Positions 8,145 through 27,115 of a stretch of 64,000 bases of DNA are shown here, piece after piece. The stretch comes from Paraphaeosphaeria minitans. Taxonomy: Eukaryota; Ascomycota; Dothideomycetes; Pleosporales; Didymosphaeriaceae. Numbering within the stretch: position 1 is the first letter of the stretch; each line of letters begins with the position of its first letter. The notes beneath the pieces are model-generated. The model had not been told where the DNA came from. It was given only the letters and a program-made list of their open reading frames with translations, and made no database searches. The stretch lies in contig WJXW01000008.1 in the NCBI GenBank assembly GCA_015832175.1, positions 248,001 to 312,000 on the forward strand, written 5' to 3'. Both the position numbers and the translations under genes were made by a program.

Positions 8145-9935
8145 CTACTTGTTGGACGGGTACCAGAAGTCCGTCTGCGGGAAGAACTCCTCCTTGATGA
8201 GTCGGGGCGTCGTGAAGCGCAGCAGCGTGTTGGGGCTGCCCGCCTTGTCGTTGGTCCCCGAGGCTCTGCTGCCGCCGAAGCTCTGCTGGCCGATGAGTGC
8301 GGCCGTGGTCTTGCAGTCTGCATGACGTTAGCTGTCTGGTGGACGAAAGTAGGACTGTGACGGCTTACTGATGTAAAAGTTTCCTGCAGAGTACCTCAGC
8401 GCATCTTCGGCCTCTCTGATCGCCGCACGCGAATTGGCAAACACCGCACCGGTCAGCGCGAAACCGCCGCCCGCCTGGTCCACCTTCTCCAGGATCGCTG
8501 GCCACTGCGCATCGGGATAGACGTGGATGGCTAGCACGGGGCCAAAGATCTCGTAGTTGAATAGCTTGTGGTCGGGCGAGTCGGCGAGGTAGACGGTGGG
8601 CTTGACGTAGAAGCCTTCCGAATCGTCGTAGGTTCCACCGGCGACCAGCTTCAGCGAAGAATCCTTGTTGCTCTCGTCGATGACGGCCTTGATCTTCTCG
8701 AACGAGTTGCGGTGGATCACCGGCCCCATGAAGGCGGCGAGGTCCTTGTGCGGGTTGCCCTGTGTGATGGTCTTCACGTCGGCGAGGAAGGCGTCGAGGA
8801 ATTCCTTTGACCGAGATTCAGGGAGGTAGAGGCGGGATGTGGCGGAGCACTTCTGGCCCTGGTACTCGAAAGAACCACGGATGGTGTGCTTGACGGCCGA
8901 AGGGATGTCGGCGGTCGGGTGGATGAGGGTGAAGTTCTTGCCGGAGGTCTCGCCGACGAGACGGGGGAACTCGCGGTAAGTGTGCTTGCCGATTTCCTGG
9001 CCGACCTTGGCTTGAAGCTGACGGAACACATCCGAGGAGCCGACGAAGCCGAGACCAGCAAACTCGCGGTGGTTCAGGATGACGTCGTTGATCTCCTCTG
9101 GGTCACCGGGAATAAATTGGATGACATCCGGGGGAAGACCGGCCTCGAGCAGGATCTCATACACGATTTGGCTGGCGTAGACGTTGGCGGGGGACGGCTT
9201 CCAGAGCACGACGTTGCCCATGATGGCAGGTCCAGAGATCAGGTTGCCACCGATGGCGGTGAAGTTGAAGGGCGATACGGCGTACACGAAACCCTCAAGC
9301 GGTCGGTAATCCAGACGTGACCACATGCCGTCGGAGCCACGGTAGGGTTGTCTGCCTAGAAGCTCCGCAGCGTAGTTGGTGTTGAGACGGAAGAAGTCAG
9401 CCAGCTCAGCAGCGGCGTCGACCTCACCCTGCCAGATGTTCTTGCCCTGGCCAAGCATGGTCGCAGCGATGAGCTTGTAGCGGTACTTCTTGGTGACGAG
9501 CTCTGCAGCCTTGATGAAGATGGCAGCACGATCCACGAAGGGGGTGTCTTGCCATGACTTCTTGGCGTTGAGGGCTGCGTCAATGGCTGCCGAGACTTGC
9601 TCCTTGGAAGTCAAGGGATTGTTGGTGAAGACAGTCTTGTGCTCTGCGGGTAGTACTTGGTCCCATGACTTGGTTGACTGCTGTGCGACACCGTTGATGA
9701 AGACGTTGGACTTGAGCGGGATTTGAGCCTGAAGCTCCTTCAGGGCCTTCTCAACTTCAGCCCGTTCCGGTGAGCCCTTCTCGTAGTCTGGGTTGGGCTC
9801 GTTCCGCTCCGGAGGAAGCTGGAATGGAATGGTGGCATTGGCTGTCGTCTTTGTGCGAACTTGGGTGGAGGGGCGGAGACGCAAAGCGGCGTTCCTGAGG
9901 CCAACAGGCCTTGATCGTAGAAGGGAGGTAGCCAT
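8145..9935 (-). CDS. prnC: delta-1-pyrroline-5-carboxylate dehydrogenase, mitochondrial
   Basis: Aldehyde dehydrogenase superfamily, P5CDH/ALDH4A1 type, 579 residues. It oxidises glutamate semialdehyde (from P5C) to glutamate with NAD+, and the 3-hydroxy analogue to 4-hydroxyglutamate. Two exons: 9935-8369 and 8317-8145. The 51-nt intron joins NFYI to NCKTTAALIGQQSFGGSR, a P5CDH hallmark. The start was chosen at MATSLLRSRPVGLRNAALR, an Arg-rich, acid-free mitochondrial targeting leader; an upstream in-frame ATG would add unrelated sequence. Catalytic Glu (LVGETSGKN, about 329) and Cys (YQGQKCSATSRLY, about 363) are present, as is SPFNFTAIGGN. It is divergent to the aldolase gene across 572 bp. 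The symbol follows the Aspergillus prn cluster by family only. It ends in PSNK, so it has no peroxisomal signal. Confidence 0.93.
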
Positions 9936-10507
9936 GATGTGCGGGTATAGTGAGTGTCCATTGTGAGCAGCGCAGAGCCATTCAAGTAGGTATTCCCTGG
10001 TTTGCCAACGAATGCAGCGCAAGCCGAAGTCGCAGTGTCGGTTGCCCACGGTACGGGATCGGCGCCGGGATAGATCACACCCCTCATTCAATGGACTACG
10101 CTGCCCGTGTGCCGTGTGAGGGATGGTGCGCTCCACACGCCAAGCTGGTCGTTGGATAGGTAGTCGGTGCGTGATCGGGAGGGCAACCGTAGCGCGCGGG
10201 ATGCAAGCGACACGCATGCGGGGTCATGGAGCATCGCATTCACCCCAATTGTCATCCTTCCGGGAGGCATGCCGAACATCGTCAAGGTCCACGATGGTTG
10301 CGAGAGCGGGCGGTGAGAACCCGGGCGGCGACGCGGAAATTCGCGGTGCCTGTAGATACCCAGGTAGGTACTGGTAGGTAGAGATGTTAGCACTGACCGT
10401 TGCCTTTTGTAGCTGAGTGCCCCCGGTGTCGCTGCCCGCGAGTCCATCTGCTTTTGCTCCGCAGGCTCGCCGTCACTGTCAAGTACCTACCTTCTGTTGT
10501 CGAAATC
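9936..10507. promoter_or_regulatory. bidirectional promoter between P5CDH and aldolase
   Basis: The only sequence between two divergently transcribed genes of the same inferred pathway, so it must drive both. It contains several CGG/CCG-rich spots (for example around 10050-10075, 10258-10275 and 10315-10335), possible Zn2Cys6 sites, and a repeated AGGTAGGTA-type motif at about 10361-10382. The assignment rests on layout. No experimentally known operator was recognised. Confidence 0.5.
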
Positions 10508-11479
10508 ATGCCCAGCATCGTGCCTCCCGGCGGCGTTTGGTGCCCTGCCATCACCTTCTTCAATCCCGACACAGACGAGCTTGCACTTGATGCGCAGGCG
10601 CGGTACTTCCACTACCTCTCAACAACGGGCCTCGCTGGGCTCGTCATCCTGGGCACGAATGCAGAGACGTTTCTTCTGACACGCGAGGAGCGCAAGACGC
10701 TTGTCGTGACGGCAAGGCAAGCGGTCGGTCCCCGCTTCCCCCTCATGGCGGGTGTGGGCGGACATTCCACACGCCAGGTTCTGGAACACATCGCAGATGC
10801 AGCCGACGCGGGCGCCAACTCGGTACTTCTGCTCCCGCCCGCTTACTTTGGAGCTGCAACGACGCCGCAGGTTGTGGAAGCCTTCTACGACGACGTGGCC
10901 CGGAAGAGTCAATTGCCCATTGTCATCTACAACTTCCCGGGTGTGTGCAATGGCGTGGACCTCCAGTCCGACCTCATCGCCACCTTGGCCCAGCGCCACG
11001 CCAACATCGTCGGTGTCAAGCTGACGTGCGGCTCTGTCGCCAAGATCACCCGCCTGGCGGCTGTCCTGCCCAAGGAACGCTTTGCAGTCTTCGGCGGCCA
11101 GTCTGATTTCATCCTAGGCGGCCTGACCTCTGGGTCCAGTGGCTGCATTGCAGCGTTCGCCAACGTGTTCCCTAGAACCATCTCGCACATCTACAAGCTG
11201 CATCAGCAGGGCCGGAACGATGAGGCTCTGGCCTTGCACCAGAAGGCGGCATTGGCGGAGCAGCCTATCAAGGCCGGCATCGCTGCGACCAAGTACGCGA
11301 CGGCGATACACAGTGCCAGATACGCCGGAATCGACAACGCTGTGACGCTGCTAAGACCGCGCAAACCCTACTTAGAGCCTACGGCACCTATCAAGGAGAA
11401 GGTGAAGTCTACAATGGCCGAAGTGGCCAAGATCGAAGAGAGCCTAGGCTCCTACACGAAGCTCTCCGCTCGATTGTAG
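10508..11479 (+). CDS. DHDPS/HOGA-family aldolase, likely 4-hydroxy-2-oxoglutarate aldolase
   Basis: Class I (Schiff-base) aldolase of the DapA/NAL family, 323 residues, single exon. The ATG before PSIVPPGGVWCPAITFF was chosen because the family fold starts there; an upstream in-frame ATG (10400) adds Cys/Arg-rich sequence. Visible motifs are LGTNAETFLLT (family GTxxE loop), Tyr141 in VIYNFPG and Schiff-base Lys171 in GVKLTCG. Fungi make lysine through alpha-aminoadipate, so a biosynthetic DapA role is unlikely. Sugar-acid aldolases of this family are an alternative. Its neighbours (P5CDH, PRODH, aspartate aminotransferase) favour cleavage of 4-hydroxy-2-oxoglutarate to pyruvate and glyoxylate. 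The protein ends in Ala-Arg-Leu, a canonical PTS1, so it is probably peroxisomal. Confidence 0.85.
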   Translation: MPSIVPPGGVWCPAITFFNPDTDELALDAQARYFHYLSTTGLAGLVILGTNAETFLLTREERKTLVVTARQAVGPRFPLMAGVGGHSTRQVLEHIADAADAGANSVLLLPPAYFGAATTPQVVEAFYDDVARKSQLPIVIYNFPGVCNGVDLQSDLIATLAQRHANIVGVKLTCGSVAKITRLAAVLPKERFAVFGGQSDFILGGLTSGSSGCIAAFANVFPRTISHIYKLHQQGRNDEALALHQKAALAEQPIKAGIAATKYATAIHSARYAGIDNAVTLLRPRKPYLEPTAPIKEKVKSTMAEVAKIEESLGSYTKLSARL

Positions 11480-12054
11480 CGACCGTGTCTTTTGTGCCAT
11501 ATTGTTTTTCTAGTTGTTTCCGACTTCCTTTCTTCCCGAGATACTTGCGATTTAGACAAGACTTAGATATTGACCTACCTATCCGATCACTTGATAACTC
11601 TATCTGCCACATGTTCCTTTAGTGTCGTGCTATCGTCTCCGAACCCCAGACCGGCGCACGTCAAATGGCTCATTGCCCACTGTTGAGCCATAGCCATACC
11701 CACATTGCGGGTCTGCTGCCGTCGCCTACCTACCTACCTTCTCGCCGGGTCCGCCGCCGATCCCCGCACTTGATACCGTGCGGCTACCTACCAAGCGGCC
11801 AATGACCGGGATCACTGCACCGGAACCCTTCCTGCCCACAATCATCCCTACTAGGCTGCCTCGACAAGGCTAGCTGGACCAGACTTGGGTAGGATGCGTC
11901 CAAGAAGCTGGCCAGGCCGTCCTTGGTGAATGTCCCGGAAGGCTATGTATACAGGCCTGGGACCGCCTTGACCAGATTTACATCTCCACTCTCTCCACTC
12001 CTCTTCCATCTCTTTCCATTACCTAAAATTATCTCAGTGCTCCAAGTCCTTGCA
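11480..12054. promoter_or_regulatory. permease upstream region
   Basis: 575 bp between the aldolase stop and the permease start. It holds CTACCTACCTACC at about 11728-11741, a second CTACCTACC near 11784, two CCGG tetramers 10 bases apart (11806-11809 and 11820-11823), a TATA-like TATGTATA at about 11944, and a pyrimidine-rich tract (about 11985-12020) just before the ATG, as is common at fungal transcription starts. Confidence 0.4.
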
Positions 12055-13973
12055 ATGGAGGGTAACAAGAGCGAGAAAGTCGTCGATGTCTCGACCTCTG
12101 GGTCGGACTTGTACCCAGTCGAGACATCGAACGAGCAGAGGGTAGGCCATGTTGGCAATGCAGATGAGCTCCAGCGACATCTGGGGAATCGTCAGCTGCA
12201 ACTTATTGCTATCGGTAAGTCTGACCAGCGGCAGGCCAAAGCAGAGCGCTCGCAGGCAATGGCGGGGAAAACCTCCGACTCAGGGGCAATTCACGCAATG
12301 TGAGCTGTGGTGCACTAACCTGTCTCAGGTGGATCCATCGGAACAGCAACCTTCGTCTCCATCTCCAACGGTCTGCTCAAGGGTGGACCCGGCTCTCTCT
12401 TCCTCGCCTATACGATCTACACCTGCATGCTGGGATTGGTCAACAACTGCCAAGCCGAAATGAGCTCTTACATGCCTGTGACCGGTGGTTTTATTCGCAT
12501 GTCGGGCAAATGGGTCGACGAGGCACTGGGATTTATGATTGGCTGGAGTGAGTTCACTGCCCTCCGGCAACCCGGTTTGACGATGCTAAATAACTGCAGA
12601 CTTCTTCATCTACGAGGCCATTCTCATCCCCTTTGAGATTACCGCACTGAACCTTGTATTGTCCTACTGGCGTGACGACATACCCGTGGAAGCCGTCGTA
12701 GCGGCATGCATTGTCCTCTACTTCTGCATCAATGCCTTCGTCGTCAAATGGTACGGAGAGTGCGAGTTCTGGCTCGCCCTCGGAAAAGTGTTCCTCCTTG
12801 GCATGCTCTTCTCCTTTACCTTTATCACCATGGTCGGCGGCAACCCCAAGAAAGACGCCTATGGCTTCCGCTACTGGAAAAATCCCGGCTCCTTTGCGGA
12901 ACACATCACTACTGGTCCTTTGGGACGGTTTGAGGGTTTCCTCGGTGCTTTGTGGAGCGCGGCTTTTACTGTTGTCGGTCCCGAATACGTGTCCATGGTA
13001 GCCGGCGAGGTGAAGAGCCCCCGGAAGTACCTCAAGCAGGCGTTCAAGGCAACGTATGCGCGTTTCGGTCTGTTCTTCATCGGCAGCGCGCTGTGCGTCG
13101 GCATCGTCGTCCCATACAACAACACAACGCTCGTCGAGATATTCAGCGGCAAGTCCAGCGGCGCCGGCACTGCGGCCGCATCCCCATACGTCATCGCCAT
13201 GAACAGTACGTCTCCGTCCTACACCCTTCCTCCCTCTGTGTTGAAACTGACAACCCCTAGACCTCGGCATCGAAGGCCTCCCTCACGTCACCAACGCTCT
13301 CCTCGTGACCTCCATCTTCTCCGCCGGCAACGCATACACCTACTACGGGACCCGCTCGCTCTACGGCCTCGCCATCGAAGGCCAAGCGCCCCGCTTCCTG
13401 CGCAAGTGCACCAAAGCCGGCGTCCCCATCTACTGCCTCTGCATCACGATCCTCTTCCCCTTCCTCGCCTTCCTCAACGCATCCTCGGGCTCCTCCAAAG
13501 TCCTCACCTGGCTCACCAACATCATCACCGGCGCGCAAATCATCGACTACATCGTCATCTGCATCAACTTCATCTTCTTCTACCGCGCGTGCAAAGCCCA
13601 AGGCCTCGACCGCCGCTCGCTGCCCTACTTCGGCCGCTTCCAGCCCTGGTCCGCCTACATCCCGCTCGCCTTCTTGACGTGCGTGGTCACGTGCTACGGG
13701 TACGCTACCTTCCTCCCTGGGAACTTCACCGTGGATGACTTCTTCACGTACTACATGATGCTGCTGGTGGACCCGGTGCTGTTCGTTGGGTGGAAGCTGT
13801 ACAAGAAGACCAAGTTCGTAAAGGCGAGCGAGGCGGATCTGATCTGGGACAAGCCCGTCATCGATGCGTACGAGGATGCGTTGGAGGAGGAGCACGTCGG
13901 GTTTTGGAGGGACGTGGGGAATATGTTTGGCAAGTGCTTTATGCGGCGGAAGAAGTCGGATGCGGAGAAGTGA
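12055..13973 (+). CDS. amino-acid permease, proline-permease-like (YAT/AAP family)
   Basis: Fungal amino-acid/H+ symporter of the APC superfamily (AA_permease), 565 residues, 12 predicted membrane helices, plasma membrane. Four exons: 12055-12214, 12329-12547, 12600-13205 and 13261-13973. All three introns are GT-AG and restore the family sequence: LIAIG/GSIGTATFVSISNGLL, FMIGW/NFFIYEAILIPFE and VIAMN/NLGIEGLPHV. The segment AAFTVVGPEYVSMVAGEVKSP and the NAYTYYGTRSLYGLA helix are typical of the YAT family, which includes Aspergillus PrnB. The cytosolic tail is acidic then basic (HVGFWRDVGNMFG, RRKKSD). The cluster context suggests proline, hydroxyproline or related imino acids as substrate; sequence alone cannot fix it. 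Confidence 0.9.
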
Positions 13974-14580
13974 GAGGTGGACGGGAAGACGTGCATGACA
14001 TCGTGAAGATGGTTATTGGATCCGGCGGCCGGGGTTACGGTGCATTTTCAGATGTGCCGATAGATGGGTGTAGAAATCATAGGATCGCAACCACAGGAGG
14101 TGGTTCATTACCTACTTAGCTATTCTTGCTCAGCATAAAGTCGGACGTGGATGCTGCAATCACAGCTATACGCACCCAAAGCATCCCATTCCCCTTCGCG
14201 CGACTTCTTTCCACTACCTACCAGATTCCAGATCCTTACGGTGCGCTAGCTTTGGGGTTGGCACGAAGCTCGCGGCTCGGCTCCACGTGACGATGGTGCA
14301 TAGATACCTAGTGCATACCTAGAGTCCCCGGTCTCCACCCGACGCCTGCTCCACTTCCGTGAATACGCGGGCGCTCGGATGTATCCCGGACGTACAGCAC
14401 AGAGGCCACTCGTTTTTCGCCGGTGCCCAACAAGGCTAAGATAGAAGAGGTAGGTACCGTAGTCCAGCATGCACGTATACATACGTACCGTACAGCTGTA
14501 GCAATCCTCTGCACTGAATAGCCCTCCTTGTCCATACTCTTCGTAGCACGTTCCCATCCGGCATTTCTACAACTGCAAAC
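13974..14580. other. intergenic; promoter of aminotransferase gene
   Basis: 607 bp with no coding potential recognised. It contains AGGTAGGTACCGTA near 14448 and further ACCTA-type words at about 14107, 14213 and 14305. The proximal part must carry the promoter of the aminotransferase gene. Confidence 0.4.
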
Positions 14581-15916
14581 ATGTTCCGCAGCGTCCCCCC
14601 GAGCCCCGCTGACCCCGTGTATCTCCTCTCGCAGCGCGTGCGAGAAGACACTGCGCCCGGCAAAGTTGATCTCGGCGTTGGCGTGTACAGGAATGAGCAA
14701 GGACGGTATCACGAACTGCGAGCGCTGAAAGCGGTCCGTACGCCCACCCACGCATATGACCCCACGGCCCGAATCTAACCACAAGAGCCCAGGCGAAGCG
14801 CATCCTCGCGCAGGAGGACGCAAACCACGACTACGGAGTGACGACGGGCAACGCGGCGTTCCTGGCCAACGCTGCAAAGCTGTTTTTCGGACGGGAGGCG
14901 GAGGTGCTCTCTTCGAAGAGAGTGACGTCCGTGCAAGCCATCTCAGGCACAGGCGCCATACACCTCGGTGCTCTCTTCCTCGCGCGCACGCCCGCGTTCG
15001 CGGGGAAGAAGGTGTACGTCGGGACGCCCGCGTGGGGCAACTACGTGCCGCTGTTCAACCTCGTTGGGCTCGAGGTGGCGACGTACAGGCACTACGACGC
15101 GGCGACTGGCAAGGTGGATTTCCAGTCTGTGCTCGAGGCGACGAGGATCGCAGAGCAAGGAAGCATATTCGTGCTGCAGGGGTGCTGCCACAACCCGTCC
15201 GGCGCGGACTTTTCGCCTGCGCAATGGGACGAGTTGGCTGATGCGATGGAGGCGAAGAAGCTGTTTCCGCTGTTCGACATGGCGTATCAAGGCCTGGGCT
15301 CGTCACTGGACGAAGATGCGTATGGGCTGCGGTTGTTTGCGAGCAGAGGCTTCGAACTCGTTGCTTGCCAGTCGTTTTCGAAAAACTTCGGACTGTATGG
15401 GGAGAGGGTCGGTGTGGTGCATGCTTTGAGTCAGGATGCAGAGGTCGCGTCAAAGGTGTATGAGAGTTTAAGATGCTTGATTCGGTGGGAGTTCTCGTCA
15501 AGCCCGGCGTACGGGGCGCGGCTGGTGGACATTGTGCTTAATGACGACAAGTTGAGGCAGGACTGGGAGATAGAATTGGCGACTATTCAGAAGCGGCTTG
15601 CGGACAATAGGAGGGCACTGCACGCGGAGCTGGTGGAGAAGCGCCAGGTGAGTCTATGTGCGTCTTACTTGATGGCATTTCGCTGATCCTGAGGTGTCGA
15701 AAGGCTCGCGGGAACTGGGGCTCGATTCTCTCATCGAATGGCCTCTTCTGCTTCCTCCCGCTGAACCCGCAGCAATGCGAGCGCCTCGCTGCAGAGTTCC
15801 ACATTCACCTGCTTCAGAACGGACGCATGAATGTGGCTGGCCTGAACCGGAGCAATATCGAACACGTGGCTTCGGCGCTCGTTGAGGTGACCAACTCGGC
15901 GTCCTCGCGCTTGTGA
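14581..15916 (+). CDS. aspartate aminotransferase family enzyme with PTS1
   Basis: PLP-dependent class I aminotransferase of the eukaryotic AspAT type, 409 residues. Exons: 14581-14737, 14788-15647 and 15704-15916. Intron 1 has GTACGC at 14738; the in-frame acceptor is the second AG of acaagag (14787). Intron 2 joins VEKRQ to ARGNWGSILSSNG. Motifs: KVDLGVGVYRNEQG, AISGTGAIHLGALFL, GCCHNPSGADFSPAQW, LFDMAYQGLGSSLDEDA and Lys251 in SQSFSKNFGLYGERVG, which binds PLP; RSNIEHVASAL is near the end. Animal AspAT converts 4-hydroxyglutamate to 4-hydroxy-2-oxoglutarate, exactly the step needed between P5CDH and the adjacent aldolase. There is no mitochondrial leader. The protein ends in Ser-Arg-Leu (PTS1), so a peroxisomal location is likely. 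It could instead be an ordinary aspartate/glutamate shuttle enzyme. Confidence 0.9.
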
Positions 15917-16365
15917 GTCTCTGTCATGCATCAAGTGAGTCGGTAATCGCGATGGCTGGATTGTGCTGGGGCGATGTTGGGAGTGGAAGGGTGGCCGACA
16001 TGCTTCTCGGATAGGCGGCCGGTGGCCAATGCGCGCGCTAGACTCAAAAGCGCCGCATTTTCCTGGAGTGATGCGGCTCCGCAAGGTAGATACGAAGCTG
16101 CCGATTGCATGCTTAATGACGTGTGGCTGTGAAGGGATTTTGCAGGACAGCGGGTGTGGAAAGGAGTGAAGAACGATGTAGACAGCTCGGAGATGGTCTG
16201 GGACAATGGGATGGCTACCTACTTAGGCACACTAGCGTTATCCTTTCCCCGCAAATTCCCATCCCTCTCGTAACGTGACGCCTGACCTCCTCGCCGCCGT
16301 CTATGGCCTTATGTATAGGGTCGTTGGAGTGCTGCGGCTAGCGATGTAACATCCCTGCGGTTGCA
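15917..16365. other. intergenic; promoter of regulator gene
   Basis: 449 bp with no gene recognised. It includes GGCTACCTACTTAGGC near 16210, another copy of the ACCTA-type word seen before several cluster genes. It presumably carries the promoter of the Zn2Cys6 regulator. Confidence 0.4.
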
Positions 16366-19090
16366 ATGCAGACGATGGCAAACTCGAGCGAACAGCGACG
16401 TGCTTCTAAGCGATCTTCCAACGCGTACGTAGGGAATTCATCCGACGGACGTGCATCCGCTTATCAGTGAAGGTGCTCACGGTGTCGACGGCAGAAGATC
16501 AAGTGTTCCGGGCTGCAGCCTTGTGCGAACTGTACCAAGAGGAGTCTGAGCTGCGTCTTTGATGATCGGGATAACAAGGTGCTGGTTACGCAGGGGTGAG
16601 TCGAGCCTTTCCATCCTTGTTGAGGCACGATGCTTGCTGAGGTGTTGGGTGCATCCCAAGAACCTCTTCAGCATCATACGCCCAAGACAGTGCAATGGCA
16701 ACCTTCAAGCTAACCGTCCGTCAGCTACCTGTCTGATCTGCAACAGAAAGTTGCCCGTTTGGAGCGAAGCCTCAGCCACACAGAAACGACCCCTGGAGTG
16801 CCTCAACAATCCCGGGAACATGGCGAAGAACCTGTTCAGGCTGGCAGCTCCTACCGAGAGCATCCTCTCCGGCCCCCTCCCGGTGGCGACCACGAGCCCC
16901 GGGAGACCTCTCGATCGAGCCCTGCAGAGACGCGGGACAACTCTCCGAAGACCGATCAGGGAAATGCGGAAAGTCACGAATTGACAAATCCCTTACTTGA
17001 GTCGCCCTCCAAGTTCATGGCCGCGTCTTCCGGGAGGACATTCTATCTGGGGACTTCATCTAATTGGTCTTTCCATGGACAGGTGTTGAATGTGGTTCAT
17101 CAGCATATTCGCAGCACTCCTCTGCCTGGGACAGAGTTTCTGTTTGATGGCTCGGCTTACAACCTTCCTTGGGCAAGTGATCCATCCCGTCGTATATGCC
17201 ACTTCACCTGTTACTTACCCTGCTGACCTGCATGCGAATCGCAGGATGGCACTCGCAGCCTGCCGGAGACAAATGCACCTGTCATTCCAAGCATCGACTA
17301 CGCCATATTTCTCATCAACGCTGTCAAGTTTCATTGTGGGCAGTTAGTACATCTGTTCGACGAAGAGGAGTTCACGGCCAAACTGCACCTTTTCTACGGA
17401 AATGCACAACCCAACAAGCTTCAGGACAGCTTGTGGTATGTCCAGTTTCTTCTGATCATCGCTTTCGGGAGGACACTCGTACAACGCAAACACCGAGAAT
17501 CGAAGCCGCCTGGAGCTGACTTCTTCGTACACGCTCTTCAGCTCCTCCCCGATACCAACCGACTGTGCCGAGAACCACTCGTCGCAACAGAGATACTGTG
17601 CGGTATCGCTCTATACCTGCAAGCCCTAGACTCACGTAACGCCGCACATGTAACGGTACGCTACACCTGCTTACACTTCCATAACAGCTACTGAGTCCCA
17701 TCCAGATCGGCCAAGCGATGCGAATAGCATTGGCAGAGGGTATGCACACCGACATGCCAGCGGCGGAGTTAGGAGAGGCATTCGTCCAGCGATGTCGCAA
17801 GATTTGGTGGACGATCTACATCCTCGATCGGCAGATGAGTTCGCAGATGGGCGTACCGCAATCGATCCGAGATGACGAGATAACGTGTCAGCTCACGCAT
17901 TTCCCTGGCTCTGCTCAACGGACAGCCGCGCTGAAGATGCAGATCAAGCTCGCGCGTATATACGCGGATATAGCCAGAAGTAGGTCGAATAAGCTCCAGT
18001 CACTGTTTTCGTCATACGTAGTGGCGACAAAGTTGTGCATAGTTAGTTCACAGGCTCACAACATGCAGGTGTCTACGGCCCAAAAGGTCGCCTTCGCAAG
18101 AAGTTTGTCATCAGTATCAAGGCGCTACTCGATGACATGGCAGCAGTCGCAGAGGAACTACGGAACTCGTTTCCTTTGCACTCCGACGAGCGATTTGGTG
18201 GGATATCAAGAATGCCGGCGCATCTACACCTGATGTACTACCAGGTAAGTCAGTCCTCTGGTAGTATGTCGTTGACGTATGGCTACCGAGTCGTTGCGCC
18301 GTGCTGACCACTGTGCGCAGACAATCGTTGTGACGACGAGGCCACTGCTATTCTGTTGCCTGAAGAAAGCATTCGAGTCTCCAAAGGAAGTGGGGCCGCT
18401 GGTATCGTCTCGTAAGATCAGGCCTCTGTTAAGCATGTCGCTGGATGCTTCGCAGAAGATTCTTAACATCCTTGAAAGCCTGCAAGACCAAGATCTACTA
18501 GGTACGACCATTCAAAAATGTCGCCGAACTCATCCGAACTGACCAGTCCAACAGAAACCTTTCTTCCGTGGGATTTAGACTCCCTATTTGTTTCGACAAT
18601 GGTTCTGGTCCTGATAAGATTCGTTGACGACACCCTATCCGAGAACAGTTCCGCCTGGCTCAGTAAAGCCTTCGCTTTTCTGGATACTATGGTATCGAAC
18701 GGGAACAAAATTGCCGAATTTAGAGCCGCTGAGTTACGCAAGTTGGAGGAAATGCTGTCCGAATACTCTGCCAACCGGACCCTACAGCCACTTCAACCAC
18801 TCGCGCCGCTTCCACCCCAACAACAACAGCCCATAGGTCAGCATCAATCACCACGACAGGGTTACACTATGCCTCCCGATATGCAGTCACCGCAAACGAT
18901 GATGAACACCGAAGCTATGGGAATGTACACCGCATTTAGCGATGAGAGTAGCGGGTTTGGTGATGATCTGACGGCAGATCAGATACTTGCCGTGGCGGAG
19001 TCGATGGATTTGGGTGCGACTGATTGGTTCAATACGTTCGCGACTATGGATACGTATCAGATGGTAGATCCGCAGCAAAATACCATCTAG
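16366..19090 (+). CDS. Zn2Cys6 transcription factor, candidate cluster regulator
   Basis: Fungal binuclear zinc cluster activator, about 735 residues (732 if the in-frame ATG at 16375 is used). Eight exons: 16366-16424, 16473-16595, 16725-17172, 17245-17655, 17706-17979, 18069-18244, 18321-18501 and 18555-19090. The zinc cluster is CSRCRRQKIKC..CANCTKRSLSC, spacing C-2-C-6-C-5-C-2-C-6-C, split by intron 1. It is followed by a linker and coiled coil (YLSDLQQKVARLERSL) and the fungal-specific middle homology region (FGRTLVQRK, ALYLQALDSRNAAHVT, RCRKIWWTIYILDRQ, QSIRDDEITCQLTHFPG). The C-terminus is Gln/Pro-rich and then acidic, as in an activation domain. Intron 3 (17173-17244) appears to be GC-AG, with donor GCAAGT. 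It lies in the middle of the catabolic block, as PrnA does in Aspergillus, so it may respond to an imino acid. Confidence 0.9.
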
Positions 19091-19399
19091 AATATTCTAA
19101 TGTCAATCCGAGAGGACGGCGTGAACGAAGCGTCTTAATTGATAAAGCTTTGCATGTTTGACCGGCGCTCTACTCATAAATACCCAAGAGACAATACAAG
19201 GGGTTGGCCCAAAGAAGTGCAATGCGTCGTAAGGTCACACAGCACGACTCCACAGCGAAGACAGTCGATTCATTTCAGCACTCGGCCATGCATAAAAAAT
19301 TGTCAAACTCACGACAGGCTCGATGGTTAGGGTTCGGAAAAAATATTGGATCGTCCTGTACGCGCTCGTTCTATTTCATGCCATCATGGCCTCATAAGA
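19091..19399. other. convergent intergenic region
   Basis: 309 bp between the stop codons of the regulator (+) and the FAD oxidase (-). It is AT-richer than its neighbours and presumably holds two 3' UTRs. Nothing else was recognised. Confidence 0.5.
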
Positions 19400-20768
19400 T
19401 TACAACTTCGCCTTCACTGGCTGCTCCGACAGATCGCGAAGCTCCCTGACATCTCCCACTCGCCAGCTTACATCGGCATCCTGACTCGTCTCGCCGTTGA
19501 CAGGCTTTGGTTCCCTCCACCGCCACCTCTTGATCGGCTGCTGTCCCCCTGATGCCTTCAACAATTCACGCACCCAGCGACCCACAATGGGGAACATTTT
19601 GAAACCATGCCCAGAATCACCGGTCATCACCATGACCGAGGCCGATGTTTCGGGCACGTAGTCGATGATGAAGTCCGAGTCGTCAGTATCAGCGAACCAG
19701 CACAGTGTCTTCTCAACCAACGGCCGATCGGCAAGGTGTGGCAGCGTCTGGCGAAGTAGTTCTTTCATCTTGAGCTCGTCTTCGTACGGCACAAAGCGAT
19801 TGAGCCCCTCTGGCGCTTTCGACACACCGCTTGCAGGGTCCGTGTTGACGTAGCCGCCACCCATGGGACAAATCTTGAGGAGGTTGGTCTTCGGGTCGGG
19901 CTCGAAGAAGAAACCTAGATCGCGGGCGTACACAACGGGGATGCCGCGCAGGGCCGCAGTCTCGTCGTCGGTGAGTCGCACGTGGCCGACCGACCACGAC
20001 TTTGCTGATACGTTGGTTCCCAGCTCGGGGAGGATCTTGTGGGCAGCTGCTCCTACGGCGACGATGACCAGGGACGCGGCATGTGCGCGGCCATCTTGCG
20101 TTCGCACACCCGTGCTTCGCCTCCCCCGGCTGGTGTTCTCGTAGATCACCTCCTTGACGGCGCCGACCTTCTCGCCGAGGAAAAATCTTACGCCGTTTGA
20201 CCTTGCAGCACGGTAGACGCCACGCAGCGCATTCGCGGAGTGTACGTAGCCGTCGTATGTGTTGATGTAGCCTCTCCAGCCAGGCAGCGAGCCAGTGAAC
20301 TGCCAGCACGCCTGGAGGAGGTCTTTGCGGTTGTTGACCGTGTTGACGAACGGCTTCATGACTGAGCTGCGCTCTGCCGCTGCCTTGAAGCGCTCCATTG
20401 TGTCGACGGCTTTTTGCGGCGCGGCTTCCGAGCAGCAATTTAAGAAGCCGACGCGGTGGAAGTAGGGTGCGTAGAAGGGCGTTTGCCATTCGTTCATTGC
20501 TTCCTGGTCTCTGAGTCAGATGGGCTTTCCTTGGTGACATTTCGAGGGGGAAACGTACGATTGCGAGATTCGTGTACCACTCGTCCTCATACTCTGCTCT
20601 TGCAATCTTGTTGAGGTCATTGGCAGCAGACCAGCGCGAAGGAATCTCCTCGTCTTTCTCGAAAACGGTAATGTTGGTGTAGCCATTTCTTGAGAGCTCG
20701 AGTGCTGTCGACAGACCGAATGCACCACCGCCGATTATGGCAATGGGTTCGCTCTTTGGGAGAGTCAT
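19400..20768 (-). CDS. FAD-dependent amine/imino-acid oxidase (DAO superfamily) with PTS1
   Basis: 437 residues, two exons: 20768-20559 and 20503-19400. The 55-nt intron has GTACGT at 20558 and CAG at 20504, joining WYTNLAI to EAMNEWQTPFYAPYF. The N-terminal Rossmann motif GGGAFG (residues 13-18, in IAIIGGGAFGLSTALELS) is followed by Glu in VFEKDEE and by SAANDLNKIARAEY, typical of sarcosine/pipecolate/fructosyl-amino-acid oxidases. GDSGHGFKMFPIVGRWV near the C-terminus is the second FAD contact. It ends in Ala-Lys-Leu, a strong PTS1, consistent with an H2O2-forming peroxisomal oxidase. The substrate is unknown. Cyclic or N-methylated imino acids (pipecolate, N-methylproline, D-hydroxyproline) fit both family and context. 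It is divergent to the SLC25-like gene. Confidence 0.87.
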
Positions 20769-21327
20769 TATGAGCTGCTCTCTGATGAATGTGCAGTGCA
20801 GGAATGTGCTGTGGAGATGTCCTTGGGGCTACGGGACTCCCACTACTTTTTGAGCATCAACAGCGAAGCTATGTTGCAATAATTCGAACCACCGTCAGGC
20901 GATGCTCGACCGGCATCGGAATATGGCTAGCAGGAACCGACGATACCCAATTGTGGGGGATGAGCACTAGTGGTGGGGCAGCGCGAGCGGGTGCCCTACG
21001 GGAGGCCTGCCGATGTGTTGTCTATCATCAGTTCATGCGGGTGCGCTCCCTGCACCCACGGAATGATTACCGTGCATCTGCGCACCACCCGAGTGACTTC
21101 ATACCGTTAACGGAAGACACGATGTGCGTCCAGAACAAGGCAATGAATACGAGAACGGACAGGCGACCGAAAGCTCAACACATCAGCTGGCAGACCTATT
21201 TGTCGGCGTTACGTACAAGCACACTGTAGCGACTCGTTGTACGTGCTTTGGAAGGTTGTGGACGATTCAATTAGATATTATCGGAGTTGAGAAGAAGCTG
21301 GCCTTCTTCTGATTCATCACTGTTCTC
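20769..21327. promoter_or_regulatory. bidirectional promoter, FAD oxidase / SLC25-like gene
   Basis: 559 bp between two divergent starts. No coding potential is convincing. It must contain both promoters. No motif stands out beyond scattered CGG/CCG triplets. Confidence 0.4.
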
Positions 21328-22289
21328 ATGACTGAGCTAGTCGAGAAGCAGAGCTTCAGTCGAGGTTGGAGCAACTACCAACTACCTGGCTACCTAGCAG
21401 GCGATGTATCTGCAGCTTTTCTATCAGCGACACTCATTTCGCCCATTCTCACGGCGATAGACAGGTGCGATCCTTTGACACTTCCAGAACCTCAATTGTA
21501 ACCTTCCACAGAGCCGTTGTCGAGAATGTATCCTCTACCACGCGGCCCCTCTCGACCGCCCTGAAAGAAAACATCCTCTGCACCTTCCGCCACCCAAAAC
21601 GCTTCTTCGTCGCAAGACCCTTCTTCTACATGTGGACGCTCTACGCTGTTACCTACACCACCGCCAACAGCCTGAACACCCTCACCAGCGCATTCATGGA
21701 CAAGTCCCACGAAGTCCTGGCCAAATCACTCACCTTCATCGCAACATGCACCGTCAACGTCCCCCTCGGCGTCTGGAAAGACATCCGCTTCGTGCAGACG
21801 TTTGGCGGAAGTCACATTCTACCACCCACAGGCCCCGCCAACACGCCTCACCATCCCCTCAAAACACCTCCTCCACCTCCACCACTACAGAGCCCAACCA
21901 AGTTCCCCAGAGCAGTCGCAGCAACCTTCCTCGCACGTGATGCCCTCACGATCCTGGGCTCCTTCACCCTCCCGCCTATGCTCTCGCACCGCATGCCGAT
22001 CGCCGACCCAGCAGCGCAGATGGCGGCGGCGCAGCTGCTGGTGCCGATCTTGTCGCAGGTTGTGGCGACGCCTGTACATCTGCTGGGACTGGATTTGTAT
22101 TCTAACCCTGGGAAGGGGGTGGAAGGGGAGCGGGCGGGGAGGATGCGGAGGGGTCTGGTGGGCACGACTGCGGTGAGGTGTGCGAGGATTGTGCCGGCGT
22201 TTGGGGTTGGCGGGATCGTCAATACGGGGTTGAGGGGGTGGTTTAGGGAGAGGGTGGATGGCGGTGGGGGGAGGAGGGAATTGAGATGA
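21328..22289 (+). CDS. conserved fungal SLC25-like membrane protein
   Basis: 304 residues, exons 21328-21464 and 21512-22289; the 47-nt intron joins SPILTAIDR to AVVENVSSTTRP. Splicing gives the first membrane segment GDVSAAFLSATLISPILTAI, then an FFVARPFFYMWTLYAVTYTTAN segment with conserved basic/aromatic residues, a third segment around LAKSLTFIATCTVNVPLGVWKD, an amphipathic Pro-rich loop and a LARDALTILGSFTLPP segment. I recall this as a fungal family related to mitochondrial carriers and often annotated only as hypothetical; the classical PxD/ExxK/R repeats are degenerate. In this block it could move an intermediate across a mitochondrial or peroxisomal membrane. The transported substrate is not known. 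Confidence 0.75.
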
Positions 22290-23303
22290 AACGTTTATAC
22301 TAGGTAGATATTCGAGGATAAGAAATCAAAGTTCTACCTGCATTGATGGTTTCTTCACAACTTGCACATGGAGATTTGGAGGGATGAACGCTTTTTCGAC
22401 GTCAAGGGTTTGGACCGTTGATTCTATGATTGTGAATCAAGGCGAATGTGCGTTTGCTTTGATGAGTAGCAAAAATGTTTAGTTCTTTATTACTTTCATT
22501 ATTTCTAGCCTGGCTGTAGAAGTTGACGGGAATACACGCAAATCGGAGAATAAAGAACTATCAAGGTGTAGGTATGCTGCATACCTAAGCGAAGGCCGCA
22601 TTGGGCAAGTGAATACGAATGCGATTTGGCATGTAGGCAGCCAATCAAGTGATGCATACCACGAGCATCGCGACAATCCCCCACCTCCCTCACACCCATA
22701 CTCAACGTGACACAACAACCACACAGGCTGCGGGATCCAGATTGCGCAGCTGTCTCAAGCTTCAGGCACCAACAGCGCCAATGCAGCTTGCCGATATCGA
22801 GCACTTTAGCTACCTATACCTACCAAGTGCTCGAGGCATGCCCAAAAAGCCCCCGCCAAATTCAGCGGCGGTGCGATACTAGTCTGTCCCAGAAGGCTAC
22901 CATCGGCTCCTACAGAAGCAGGGCCCAGAGCAATCGGGCCCGGATCATTATTCCATTATCGAAAGATCTAGCGCACTACACGTGTCATCCGCTGGGGAGT
23001 GTGCCGCAAGCTAAACACGGCGCTATGCGAATCGGCTGCCCGCCCGTTGTAGGACTGCTTATCGGGATGGGCCTGCGAGGGGTCACGGAGCGTCTACGGT
23101 GTCTACGGTGTCTACGGAAGCACCGATCTCGCTGGAGAGTCAGGTGCGGGGTTGTCGCTTTGAGGTGCCCGTGGGTGGCTGGGTGGGGTATACAGCGACT
23201 ACATGAGGATGGCTATCTCATGGTGAGGTTGTTGTTCTCCAAGCTGTCTTGCTCACTGAAAGGTTCTTCACTCTTCTACCGAGAGACTCTTTCTTGAGCA
23301 ACG
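22290..23303. other. intergenic; upstream region of proline dehydrogenase
   Basis: About 1 kb without a supported gene. It contains ACCTA-type words (about 22291, 22566, 22808) and a short triplicated GTCTACGGT block at about 23092-23117. The proximal part must act as promoter for proline dehydrogenase. Confidence 0.4.
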
Positions 23304-24834
23304 ATGCTACCACACCGTATCGGGACTGTAACTTCAAGGAGACTACCAAAGGATGGCTTCGCCACTGTATCTTACCTCCAGGTACGGTGGCACACAGGTG
23401 TCATTCCGTCGTCGAGGAGCGTCGGAGCAACCACACATATGAACAATGATACGGCAAAGACACCATGCACAACTAAAGTACTGCCTCCAGAGGCTGCAGC
23501 ATCAGACGCACCACTGTAAGTTTCCATGGCCCCTCCTCTCCGTCTGCACAGGCATGGAAAGCAACATGAACGTCCCTACTAACTCCCTCGTCAGAGCTAA
23601 GATGCCACTCGAGATGCTCCTCCGATCTTTTTTCATTGCAACCATATCTTCCAAGAAGTTCCTTTTGATACCCGCACTGAAATTACTGTCCTTCTTTTCG
23701 AAACCGGGGCGGAGCTACCTTTTCAACGTGGACCGGAACCCCGTCCTCCACGGAATCCTCAAGAAGACTTTCTACAACCAGTTCTGCGCCGGCGAGTCGA
23801 AGCAGGAGACCAAGGCATGCTGCAAGTCGTTGACCGATCTCGGTTTCAAGGGGATCATCCTCACGTTCGCCAAGGAAATGGTGTTTGACCACAGGAACAA
23901 AGCACCAGAAGCCCCCGCTGAGCAAGCAGCAAAAGCAGAGACTGCAGCAACACACGACCCGGTGGTAGAAGAGTGGCGCGTAGGCACGCTCGCCACGGTC
24001 GACATGATCGAGAAAGGCGACATCCTTGCCCTCAAGACCACCGGCGGCGGGCCCGCCGTAGGAGAGGCGTTCCACAGAGGCGAGCTGCCTCCGCAGCAAA
24101 TGATGGATGCGCTGGACGAGATCGCGACCAAGTGCAAAGAGCGCGGCATCCAGATCATCGTCGACGCAGAATCGCAGTATTTCCAAAAGGGCATCGCACG
24201 CACATCGCTCGAGCTGATGCGCAAGTTCAACCGCGAGCCCACGGTCGTCATCTACAACACGTACCAGGCGTACCTCAAGAACCAGCCCAAGTACCTGCAG
24301 CAGCACCTCGCCGAGGCCGAAAAGGACGGCTTCACGCTGGGCTTGAAGCTCGTCCGGGGCGCCTACATCTTGTCAGACGACCGAGCTCTGATCCACGACA
24401 CGAAAGAGGACACCGACGCCGCGTACAACGGCATCGTCGAGGGCGCTCTCCACCAGAAGCTCTGGGACTTTGGTGTCTCGCGCCCGTTCCCGGCGACCAA
24501 CCTGTTCCTGGCCAGCCACAACAAGCACAGCCTCATCACGGCACAGCGGCTGCAGGCGCAGCGGGAGAGTGACGGCTTGCCCACTGTGCCGATTGCGTTC
24601 GCGCAGCTGCACGGCATGTCTGACGAAGTTGGCTTTTCGCTGCTGAAGGAACAGTGTGCGGATGGGAAGGCGCCCGATGTGTTCAAGTGCTCGACATGGG
24701 GCAGCATGGGGGACTGCGTGGCGTACCTTTTGCGGAGGGCGGTGGAGAATAGGGATGCGGTGTTGAGGACCAAGGATGAGTTCAATGCGTTGAAGAAGGA
24801 GGTTTGGAAACGGCTGGGCTTCGGACGGTCGTAG
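23304..24834 (+). CDS. prnD: proline dehydrogenase (PRODH), mitochondrial
   Basis: FAD-dependent proline (or hydroxyproline) dehydrogenase, 483 residues, inner mitochondrial membrane; oxidises L-proline to P5C and passes electrons to the respiratory chain. Exons 23304-23515 and 23595-24834; the 79-nt intron joins ASDAPL to AKMPLEMLLRSFF. The leader (MLPHRIGTVTSRRLPKDGF) is basic and mitochondrial-like. Barrel motifs: IIVDAESQ, LGLKLVRGAY (Arg about 325), NLFLASHN, FAQLHGMSDEVGF, GDCVAYLLRRAVENRD. A roughly 30-residue Ala/Glu-rich insert (APEAPAEQAAKAE) lies before the barrel, as in other fungal enzymes. In a cluster with an aminotransferase and a HOGA-type aldolase, it may prefer 4-hydroxyproline. 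The symbol is by family only. Confidence 0.93.
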
Positions 24835-25416
24835 GGATTGCATTTCACGAGTTTTACGAATGAGCATGGATGGAGTCGGACCATTGATTGATTGATTGAT
24901 AAGCTTCTTTATTTGGATGAGATGTGATTTGCAGTGTTTTCTTGTTTCTTGGGGAAGAAAATTTGAGCTGTGGACGGAGACCGCGTACTGCAGGCCGTGC
25001 TCGCAGGATAGGATAAATCGAATGCATGGAGATCAACTCTTTTGTCATCTCAGGGGGCGGTGAGTGATCCTGGACCATGTGATTGCTACAAGCGCTCAAA
25101 GTGAGGACTTCCCTAGGCTGCTCAAACGATACCCACCTTCATAGAGATGGCGGTCTATCCATTCGTACATACTATTGATGTAATGTCACCGTGATTATTG
25201 TTCGATGGTGGAATTGAGCGATAGGTAGTGACATAGCGCCATGTGGGGGAGGGACACCCAATCGGCGTGGCAGCCGTTGCGACTTCGGCCCAAGGAGAGC
25301 ATACCCAACATCGACTCGCAACAGCTGCCACGGACAAAACGCACCACCAACATCCCCGAAGGAACACGTAGCCCTCTTAGTCGAGAAGATCGAACCACGG
25401 ACAAAAAAAACGCAGC
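24835..25416. other. intergenic; upstream of P5C reductase
   Basis: 582 bp. It has a short TTGATTGATTGATTGAT microsatellite at about 24883-24899 just after the proline dehydrogenase stop. No gene is supported. The distal part must carry the P5C reductase promoter. Confidence 0.45.
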
Positions 25417-26431
25417 ATGGCTGACACCACTCTATGCATTCTTGGCTGCGGTGAGCAGGGAGACCCTCAACGGCAGCACAGTGACCTGACAAGCAAATCC
25501 AGGCAATCTGGGGACACCGATATTGAGTAGTTTGATGGGAGCACCCGACGGTTCGGGGATCCAATTCACACACTTCATAGCCTGCGTGCACAGTGCCGCG
25601 TCGGTAGAACGGTTAGCAAAGCGCTTCCCCAAGGAGAAGGAGTCCGGAAAACTAGTCATTTCTCGAGGTCAAAACGCCAAAGCAGTCTCCGATGCCTCCG
25701 TTACAATCCTCGGCGTGGACCCCGCAGACGTCGAAGCCACGCTCAAAGAGGACGGCGTCGCGGTAGCCCTCAAAGGCAAACTCGTCATCAGCATCGCAGC
25801 CGGCTGGGCGCGCGAAACGCTCGAAAAGGTCATCTCGTCGGCGCAAGGCAGTCCCTTGTCCTCCTCCTCCTCCTCTTCCTCGTCCCCTTCCTCCAGCGCA
25901 GACGCAAAAACCTGGGTCCTCCGCACCCTCCCCAACGTCGCCGCCCAAGTCTCCCAATCCCTCACTGCCCTCGAAGACCCCGCCCCAGACACCCCAGACG
26001 CGCACCTCCAGACCTGCCGCGCCATCTTCAACCAGGTCGGCCGCACCGTGCAGCTCGCGCCCAAGCTCATGGGCCCGGCGTCGGCCATCGGCGGCTCCAC
26101 GCCCGCCTTCTGGGCTGTCATCTGCGACGCCTTGGTCGACGCGTCGGTCGCGGTGGGCGTGCCCAGGACGGCGGCGCAGGAGATGATCTACCAGAGCATG
26201 CGGGGCTCGGCGGCGATGCTGCAGAGCGGGATCCAGCCCGGGGAGCTGCGGGACATGGGGACGAGTCCGGAGGGGTGCACGATTGGGGGGATCATGGTTT
26301 TGGAGGAGAATGGGGTGAGGGGGGCGTTGGGGAAGGCGTTGAGGGAGGCGGTGACGCTGGCGAGGTTGATGGGGAGCGAGAGGGAGGGGTTGCATGTTAA
26401 TGATACGAGGGAAAATACGGGGAGACAGTGA
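25417..26431 (+). CDS. pyrroline-5-carboxylate reductase (ProC family)
   Basis: NAD(P)H-dependent reductase, 320 residues, converting P5C (or 3-hydroxy-P5C) to proline (or hydroxyproline). Exons 25417-25450 and 25503-26431; the 52-nt intron falls inside the nucleotide-binding turn, CILGCG/NLGTPILSS. A Ser-rich linker (poly-Ser near residue 135) interrupts the Rossmann domain. The dimerisation domain has GPASAIGGSTPAFW, an AAQEMIYQSMRGSA helix and the signature GTSPEGCTIGGIMVLEENGVRGAL. It has no organelle signal, so cytosolic. A biosynthetic enzyme beside PRODH and P5CDH is unexpected; it may recycle P5C, act on the hydroxylated imine, or reduce pyrroline-2-carboxylate. Confidence 0.9.
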
Positions 26432-27115
26432 GGGGGTGGGAGTGCGCTGGGGTGGGACAGATTGGAAAGAGGAGAGGCTTGCTGAGGTCGACGTTGAGCT
26501 GCGTTACCTACTCGCCCGCTGGCTCTTGTTGCGAGACACTTTCGGCCATGCGGGCTATCAAACCGCCCGATGCAGTAGGTTAGGGGAGCATCGATGGCGG
26601 TGGGGACCTAAGCTCACTGCCAGACGGCCGGGGACTGAGACCGAGCTCTCTGACCTGGCAATTCTGAAAAGCGTCGATGTTTGCAGGTGGCAGCCGACAC
26701 TGCCGGCATGGCCTTGAGTACACCCGCTACATCAGAGGATCTTGAGAAGCGGGTATAAATGTACACTGTATTCGGCACACGGCACGAGACTCTGGACCGC
26801 GTGAAGCATCCTCAGAAAGTACATGTGTTGGCAATCATCCAGGACGGAAAACATCCCAGCTGCGAGTCAATCTCATCAACTTTTGTATCATTGAGAAGAA
26901 TTAGATGCACAACCCCACGCCAGAGCAAATGCGAAGTGAGCACTAGAAACAGACGCCTGGAAATGCCAAACCACGCAATACAGCCAGCGAACTCCACTCA
27001 ATCCAAGTAGTCGAAATAAACAAGATGTCAGCACCGACGAGCTCGGCTATGCAGAACTATGTAGCACAATGCGATGAAAACCATCGAAAACAATCCATCG
27101 TACACTCGGCAAGCA
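26432..27115. other. convergent intergenic region
   Basis: 684 bp between the stops of P5C reductase (+) and CDF copy 2 (-). No open frame resembles a known family, and no repeats were recognised. Confidence 0.5.

What the first reader, a model, noticed from the sequence alone, without database searches (positions are those of the whole stretch)
8145..26431. Nine-gene block encoding a complete candidate 4-hydroxyproline catabolic pathway
Seen: intact P5CDH, DHDPS/HOGA-family aldolase, amino-acid permease, aspartate aminotransferase, Zn2Cys6 regulator, FAD oxidase, SLC25-like protein, PRODH and P5C reductase, contiguous with no unrelated gene between. Known: in animals trans-4-hydroxy-L-proline is broken down by a PRODH-type enzyme, P5CDH, aspartate aminotransferase and HOG aldolase to pyruvate and glyoxylate; Aspergillus prn clusters carry only the proline part (regulator, permease, PRODH, P5CDH). 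Inference: this is an enlarged prn-like cluster dedicated to hydroxyproline, for example from collagen or plant cell-wall glycoproteins. I do not know of a described cluster with this composition.
Basis: partly seen in the sequence, partly recalled or inferred. Interest (0 to 1): 0.92.

Follow-up and report, generated by a model that had tools for sequence, protein, structure and literature searches.

The report
Fungal gene cluster for hydroxyproline breakdown
A fungus very close to Paraphaeosphaeria minitans carries nine neighbouring, probably co-controlled genes that together look like a dedicated route for breaking down hydroxyproline, the modified amino acid of collagen and plant cell walls, with the last two steps apparently sent to the peroxisome.

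Summary
The nine-gene block (8145-26431) is real. PRODH is 100% identical to that of Paraphaeosphaeria minitans. Eight of nine labels hold; "SLC25-like" could not be confirmed. New evidence that it is one unit: (i) a candidate operator, CGG-N8-CCG, occurs 11 times in six of seven internal promoter regions (1.2 expected; 0 of 500 shuffles) and not in the flanking gaps; (ii) PRODH, P5CDH, P5CR, AAT and aldolase all have relatives elsewhere in the genome, so this is a dedicated set; (iii) aldolase, aminotransferase and PRODH homologs share contigs in 22 cases. Best reading: animal-type 4-hydroxyproline catabolism to pyruvate and glyoxylate. Unlike the animal route, aldolase (-ARL), aminotransferase (-SRL) and FAD oxidase (-AKL) end in peroxisomal-type signals, as does malate synthase (-AKL). 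The substrate is inferred, not shown. PRODH has Cys where a Tyr disfavours hydroxyproline in PutA (recalled), but 118 of 120 closest homologs have it too, so it is not diagnostic. Roles of FAD oxidase, P5C reductase and the SLC-like protein are open. No such cluster was seen in the paper listings searched.

The parts
8145..9935 (-). P5C dehydrogenase, 579 aa, intron 8318-8368; presequence-like N-terminus (by eye, no predictor run)
   Evidence: TIGR01236 689 bits over cut-off 613.6; best PDB hits are mitochondrial P5CDHs; relative on C1
10508..11479 (+). DHDPS-family aldolase, candidate 4-hydroxy-2-oxoglutarate aldolase, 323 aa; T50-N51, Y141, K171, T173 at the HOGA1 S77-N78, Y168, K196, S198 positions; C-terminus ARL (11468-11476)
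   Evidence: residue roles from PMC3188589 passages
12055..13973 (+). Amino-acid permease, 565 aa, three introns
14581..15916 (+). Aspartate aminotransferase paralog, 409 aa, C-terminus SRL (15905-15913); K251, R285, R380 kept
   Evidence: public P. minitans model (406 aa) also ends SRL
16366..19090 (+). Zn2Cys6 transcription regulator, about 744 aa, several introns (some junctions uncertain)
19400..20768 (-). FAD oxidase of the sarcosine oxidase/fructosyl amine oxidase group, 437 aa, C-terminus AKL (19403-19411); substrate not assigned
21328..22289 (+). SLC-like protein, 304 aa (a 317-aa variant ranked first in the script); SLC25 membership not confirmed
23304..24834 (+). Proline dehydrogenase-family enzyme, 483 aa; presequence-like N-terminus (by eye); Cys436 (codon 24688-24690) at the PutA Tyr540 position
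25417..26431 (+). P5C reductase family enzyme, 320 aa
10054..10274 (.). Three CGG-N8-CCG candidate operators (10054, 10176, 10261) between P5CDH and aldolase
11708..11759 (.). Two CGG-N8-CCG candidate operators (11708, 11746) upstream of the permease
16008..16021 (.). CGG-N8-CCG candidate operator upstream of the regulator; a further one at 16446 in its predicted first intron
20999..21169 (.). Three CGG-N8-CCG candidate operators (20999, 21059, 21156) between FAD oxidase and SLC-like gene
23033..23046 (.). CGG-N8-CCG candidate operator upstream of PRODH
25263..25276 (.). CGG-N8-CCG candidate operator upstream of P5C reductase

Best explanation
A dedicated, co-regulated catabolic cluster for trans-4-hydroxy-L-proline. 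The permease imports it; mitochondrial PRODH oxidises it to 3-hydroxy-P5C; mitochondrial P5CDH makes 4-hydroxyglutamate; a peroxisomal aspartate-type aminotransferase makes 4-hydroxy-2-oxoglutarate; a peroxisomal DHDPS-family aldolase splits this to pyruvate and glyoxylate, and glyoxylate can meet malate synthase in the same organelle. The cluster's own Zn2Cys6 protein probably acts through CGG-N8-CCG sites. Shown here: gene content, the operator-like repeat, targeting-type ends, relatives elsewhere in the genome, conserved linkage of three of the genes. Inferred: substrate, every reaction, localisation, the regulator-site pairing. Roles of the FAD oxidase, SLC-like protein and P5C reductase are open.
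For: All four families of the vertebrate pathway (PMC8779045, passage) sit together. CGG-N8-CCG: 11 observed, 1.17 expected, 0 of 500 shuffles reach it, and 0 of 500 reach the best z over all 66 patterns tried; none in the flanking gaps. Relatives outside the block for PRODH, P5CDH 56%, P5CR 37%, AAT 42% and 38%, aldolase 60% and lower. Linkage: 22 contig lengths shared by at least two of the aldolase, PRODH and AAT hit lists (one of them P. minitans itself), 8 by all three, none repeated within a list. HOGA1 Lys196, Tyr168 and Asn78 are matched; AAT keeps its catalytic residues. Three of nine C-termini are PTS1-like, about 2e-6 by composition; malate synthase reads to AKL. No proline racemase/epimerase family found in the genome.
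Against: No hydroxyproline-exclusive feature found. The PRODH Cys is in 118 of 120 closest homologs, 2 have Ser (an earlier pattern read 104 of 120), including Aspergillus, Penicillium and Colletotrichum proteins called proline oxidase or proline dehydrogenase, so it may mark ordinary fungal PRODH. Human HOGA1 (101 bits) is no closer to the aldolase than DHDPS entries (110, 103) or YagE (100), and the key Asn is in all five readable relatives of the aldolase in this genome. Strict PTS1-like ends hold in only 29 of 120 aldolases and 15 of 120 AATs. P5CR would reverse the first step. One promoter region, before the aminotransferase, has no operator.
Confidence: 0.7

Rival explanations
1. An enlarged proline (prn-type) cluster: proline is the main substrate, PRODH and P5CDH give glutamate, the aminotransferase feeds 2-oxoglutarate, and the aldolase and oxidase are add-ons for minor substrates.
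For: Regulator, permease, PRODH and P5CDH are the prn set of A. nidulans (PMC5983819, passages). The Cys-type PRODH is the common type among the closest homologs (118 of 120).
Against: It leaves the conserved aldolase-aminotransferase linkage unexplained. No PrnA-type CCGG repeats in the seven promoter regions. A second PRODH with Tyr and a second P5CDH exist elsewhere that could serve proline.
Confidence: 0.17
2. A cluster for another substrate, for example another hydroxylated or N-substituted imino acid or an Amadori compound of proline, opened by the peroxisomal FAD oxidase, with PRODH, P5CDH, P5CR and the aldolase downstream.
For: The FAD oxidase's best PDB match is a fructosyl amine oxidase, 208 bits; FAD oxidase, aldolase and AAT share PTS1-like ends; an oxidase plus an imine reductase (P5CR) would suit such a route.
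Against: No such pathway is known to me to need an HOG-type aldolase with an aspartate aminotransferase; conservation of the FAD oxidase across species was not tested.
Confidence: 0.08
3. A bacterial-type hydroxyproline route: FAD oxidase forms pyrroline-4-hydroxy-2-carboxylate, the DHDPS-family protein is its deaminase and the aldehyde dehydrogenase makes 2-oxoglutarate.
For: The same three broad families (DAO, DHDPS, ALDH) serve the bacterial route (recalled); oxidase and DHDPS-family protein share PTS1-like ends.
Against: No proline racemase/epimerase family found in the genome; the ALDH is a P5CDH (689 bits, cut-off 613.6) and scores 174 against a cut-off of 770 for one alpha-ketoglutaric semialdehyde dehydrogenase model; PRODH and AAT would be unexplained.
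Confidence: 0.04
4. Neighbours without common function.
For: Fungal genes are dense (general knowledge); three of nine have no place in the animal pathway.
Against: Shared operator-like repeat and conserved linkage.
Confidence: 0.01

Closest known systems
Vertebrate 4-hydroxyproline catabolism (PRODH2/HYPDH, P5CDH, GOT2, HOGA1)
   Same: Same four enzyme families and the same inferred reaction order (PMC8779045, passage).
   Different: Genes clustered with a permease and a Zn2Cys6 regulator; aldolase and aminotransferase carry PTS1-like ends instead of being mitochondrial; fungal PRODH has Cys, not the recalled Ser of PRODH2; extra FAD oxidase, P5CR and SLC-like genes.
Aspergillus nidulans prn cluster (prnA, prnX, prnD, prnB, prnC)
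   Same: Zn2Cys6 regulator, amino-acid permease, proline oxidase and P5CDH in one block (PMC5983819, passages).
   Different: Adds aldolase, aminotransferase, FAD oxidase, SLC-like gene and P5CR; no PrnA-type CCGG repeats but CGG-N8-CCG; an equivalent of prnX was not searched for.
PDB 3qfe, putative DHDPS-family protein
   Same: 458 bits over residues 5-313 of the aldolase; same active-site motifs.
   Different: The molecule name gives no tested function; its source (Coccidioides) is recalled, not from a call.
Bacterial hydroxyproline epimerase pathway
   Same: Uses members of DAO, DHDPS and ALDH families (recalled).
   Different: Epimerase family not found in this genome; the ALDH here is a P5CDH.

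Membership tests
Animal-type 4-hydroxyproline pathway | PRODH-, P5CDH-, AAT- and HOGA-family (DHDPS superfamily) enzymes all present | tested here: met
   Pfam, P5CDH equivalog, PDB matches
Animal-type 4-hydroxyproline pathway | First enzyme prefers hydroxyproline to proline | tested here: inconclusive
   Cys436 at the PutA Tyr540 position, but Cys in 118 of 120 closest homologs; the PutA and PRODH2 residue effects are recalled
Animal-type 4-hydroxyproline pathway | All four enzymes mitochondrial | tested here: not met
   Aldolase ends ARL and AAT ends SRL; sequence signals only, no localisation data
Animal-type 4-hydroxyproline pathway | Growth on or flux from hydroxyproline | not testable with these tools
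   needs experiment
HOG aldolase (HOGA) | Lys196, Tyr168 and Asn78 | tested here: met
   K171, Y141, N51 aligned
HOG aldolase (HOGA) | Ser77 and Ser198 | tested here: inconclusive
   Both positions hold Thr; in human HOGA1 S77T significantly lowers kcat and kcat/KM, and S198T keeps about 18% of kcat/KM (PMC3188589)
HOG aldolase (HOGA) | Closer to HOGA1 than to other DHDPS-family enzymes | tested here: not met
   HOGA1 101 bits, DHDPS entries 110 and 103, YagE 100
prn cluster | Zn2Cys6 regulator, permease, PRODH, P5CDH clustered | tested here: met
prn cluster | PrnA sites (CCGG-N-CCGG; CCGG-N6/7-CCGG) in promoters | tested here: not met
   none in seven promoter regions
Bacterial epimerase pathway | Hydroxyproline epimerase (PF05544) | tested here: not met
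   0 matches in the genome, six-frame exon-wise search

The most novel reading that the evidence does not exclude
Pezizomycotina have a conserved, mobile hydroxyproline cluster whose pathway is split between organelles: oxidation in the mitochondrion, transamination and aldol cleavage in the peroxisome, so that glyoxylate is released next to malate synthase and becomes carbon instead of oxalate. Closely related copies in Bipolaris maydis and Curvularia clavata would reflect horizontal transfer.
Probability: 0.4. Interest if true: 0.75.

Novelty: new variant of a known kind. Interest (0 to 1): 0.6.

Why it matters
Hydroxyproline is abundant in collagen and plant cell-wall glycoproteins. A. fumigatus grows slowly on it as nitrogen source (PMC2526178, passages), yet the paper listings I searched showed no fungal gene set for its breakdown. 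If right, this names the genes, gives a likely function to a solved but unassigned structure (3qfe) and its many fungal relatives, and offers a eukaryotic contrast to the human pathway whose glyoxylate feeds primary hyperoxaluria.

Tried and rejected
Rejected: PRODH-P5CR fusion enzyme. Twenty of 120 PRODH homologs are annotated with both domains, but 16 of the 21 proteins over 600 aa lack the YxxRR motif at the end of PRODH and 5 keep it; where the join was printed, most also lose the first residues of P5CR. I read them as gene-model errors that show adjacency. Rejected as diagnostic: the PRODH Cys and the aldolase Asn. Rejected: PrnA sites. Led nowhere: single-sequence fold of the SLC-like protein; Pfam and PDB searches for it; phmmer of PRODH against PDB (no hit; the profile search gave weak hits, best E 4e-8). 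In the operator scan CGG-N8-CGG direct repeats were also raised (9 against 2.3, 0 of 500 shuffles) and CGG-N12-CGG less so. CTACCTA was enriched in these promoters and not pursued. Novelty searches: which listed 20 of 104, 20 of 214, 8 of 8, 15 of 22, 6 of 6, 12 of 42 and 1 of 1 papers; the library holds only open-licence papers and no preprints.
Full report
What is there. The window lies on contig C8 of a 47.45-Mb fungal genome. Its PRODH is identical over 483 aa to PMIN06_002791 of Paraphaeosphaeria minitans, and its aminotransferase is 99% identical to PMIN06_002787, so the organism is that species or very close. Nine genes were modelled with a splice-site script and match the finding's order and end points; for four of them I preferred the second-ranked model (see observation check). 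Pfam supports eight of nine labels. The SLC25 label is not confirmed: no Pfam hit at E up to 10, no informative PDB hit, a single-sequence model with pLDDT 37.6. Four ORFs of 139-196 aa in or across the gaps have no Pfam hit.

One regulatory unit. I counted CGG/CCG half-site pairs in three orientations and 22 spacings (66 patterns) in the seven internal gaps that hold promoters (4,358 bp; the eighth gap lies between two gene ends). CGG-N8-CCG occurs 11 times in six of seven; 500 dinucleotide shuffles gave a mean of 1.17 and a maximum of 5, and no shuffle reached the observed best z over all 66 patterns. CGG-N8-CGG was also raised (9 against 2.3). Density is 2.52 per kb against 0.20 per kb in the 40 kb of the window outside the block and 0.49 per kb in 64.7 kb from 15 other loci of the genome. 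A twelfth site is in the regulator's predicted first intron. The region before the aminotransferase has none. There is none in the flanking gaps 7137-8144 and 26432-27115 or from 28493 to 29000; the two cation-efflux genes beside the block have one and three inside their coding sequence, and several cluster genes have some too. Over the whole window 32 sites is only weakly above chance (24.4 expected; 6 of 100 shuffles reach it), so the signal is specific to these gaps. That Zn2Cys6 proteins bind such repeats is general knowledge; the pairing with this regulator is inferred. PrnA-type repeats are absent from the seven regions.

A dedicated gene set. PRODH has a relative on C2 (42% and 26% over two stretches), P5CDH on C1 at 56%, P5CR on C4 at 37%, AAT on C7 and C3 at 42% and 38%, aldolase on C4 at 60% and several lower. 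The C7 and C3 AATs, as read, do not end in PTS1-like residues.

Conserved linkage. Contig lengths (the longest contig of each protein cluster) in the three homolog tables (120, 120 and 119 usable rows; only the best 120 of each were listed) were compared. Twenty-two lengths are shared by at least two families, eight by all three, and none repeats within a table. One of the 22 is P. minitans itself. For the 18 with species names the names agree; four are metagenome contigs, among them 30,260 bases (aldolase and PRODH), 30,313 and 51,325 bases (aldolase and AAT). Length is a proxy for contig identity, and sharing a multi-megabase contig does not prove adjacency. Locus tags add distance: Kalmusia 001802 (aldolase), 001804 (AAT), 001809 (PRODH); Paraconiothyrium brasiliense 003064 and 003070; Diaporthe australafricana 005424 and 005418. 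Twenty PRODH-P5CR joint annotations show that those two genes are neighbours in both Pleosporales and Sordariomycetes (class names recalled). Many aldolase homologs, of Xylariales for instance, showed no partner in these lists, so linkage is not universal or not visible here.

Enzymes. The aldolase aligns to human HOGA1 with Lys196, Tyr168 and Asn78 kept and Ser77 and Ser198 replaced by Thr. In HOGA1, S77T significantly lowers kcat and kcat/KM and S198T keeps about 18% of kcat/KM (PMC3188589, passages). GTNAE is found in 120 of 120 closest homologs and GVKLT in 113 of 120. Overall similarity does not single out HOGA1, so HOG cleavage rests on context plus catalytic residues. The aminotransferase keeps the Lys, both substrate-carboxylate Arg and other catalytic residues of aspartate aminotransferases (residue roles recalled). 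PRODH Cys436 falls on PutA Tyr540 (numbering recalled) in the weak alignment to 7mwt, and both lie 12 residues before the Tyr of the YLxRR motif; in the alignment to 3e2q, which has Ser there, HMMER shifts by one residue. That this Tyr disfavours hydroxyproline and that PRODH2 has Ser are recalled. The C2 relative has Tyr, but 118 of 120 closest homologs have Cys and 2 Ser. E. coli ProC oxidises both 4-hydroxy-L-proline isomers 150- to 300-fold less efficiently than proline (PMC12899673, passages), so a role of P5CR on hydroxylated rings is possible but not indicated.

Compartments. Aldolase, AAT and FAD oxidase end ARL, SRL and AKL; PRODH, P5CDH and the other four do not end so. Chance for three of nine is about 2e-6 by composition, though ends of related proteins are not random draws. 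The AAT end depends on the chosen model; the public P. minitans protein has it too. Strict PTS1-like ends are found in 29 of 120 aldolase, 15 of 120 AAT and 0 of 120 PRODH homologs, and in 13 of the 23 best AAT rows; the lists include truncated models. The genome's malate synthase reads to an AKL end across a likely intron. This suggests that glyoxylate is made where malate synthase can use it; localisation was not measured.

Literature. A review lists the A. nidulans prn genes as prnA, prnX, prnD, prnB and prnC (PMC5983819, passages). A. fumigatus grows slowly on hydroxyproline, and proline oxidase is among its functions raised in infection (PMC2526178, passages). A. niger cultures on collagen hydrolysate lose hydroxyproline from the medium (PMC12333218, passages). 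Vertebrate steps are from PMC8779045 (passage). The listings showed no title or abstract start about a fungal hydroxyproline cluster; I read passages of a few papers only, and no whole text.

Evolution. In the PRODH tree (38 of 120 homologs, picked by hand) two B. maydis rows sit with P. minitans, Paraconiothyrium and Karstenula (100/99), while B. oryzae and B. zeicola pair among the other Pleosporaceae. In the aldolase tree (30 homologs plus the window) Curvularia clavata falls in the P. minitans group (100/99). Transfer, contamination or mislabelled assemblies could each explain this.

Verdict. The block is real, very probably a regulon, and most likely a hydroxyproline pathway (0.7; the recount of the Cys did not change this, as the residue was already treated as undiagnostic). 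The pathway itself is known from animals; the clustering, the operator and the apparent peroxisomal half are what is new, so I rate it a new variant of a known kind.

Noticed in passing
5337-7136 and 27116-28492 (both -): Two Cation_efflux-family genes flank the block, one on each side, 45% identical over 280 aa; the block may lie between duplicated genes.
   Followed up: partly
L018 and L019 (G000 C4:2812000-2827000): The closest aldolase relative is split by about 6 kb holding opposite-strand ORFs with reverse transcriptase, endonuclease and RNase H domains, as in a non-LTR retrotransposon.
   Followed up: partly
P0122, P0129, P0002: Bipolaris maydis PRODH and Curvularia clavata aldolase group with Didymosphaeriaceae, not with their own family: possible horizontal transfer or contamination.
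   Followed up: partly
P0125, P0129, P0131 and 17 others: Twenty homologs in public annotation join PRODH and P5CR in one protein; most joins look like gene-model errors.
   Followed up: yes
17 places in the window, 13 of them within 7978-25228: CTACCTA is enriched (17 against 3.1 expected), mostly in and beside the block; meaning unknown.
   Followed up: no
L040 (G000 C7:2150126-2151282): The SLC-like gene has a 48% relative whose reading frames are separated by a stretch of repetitive sequence.
   Followed up: no
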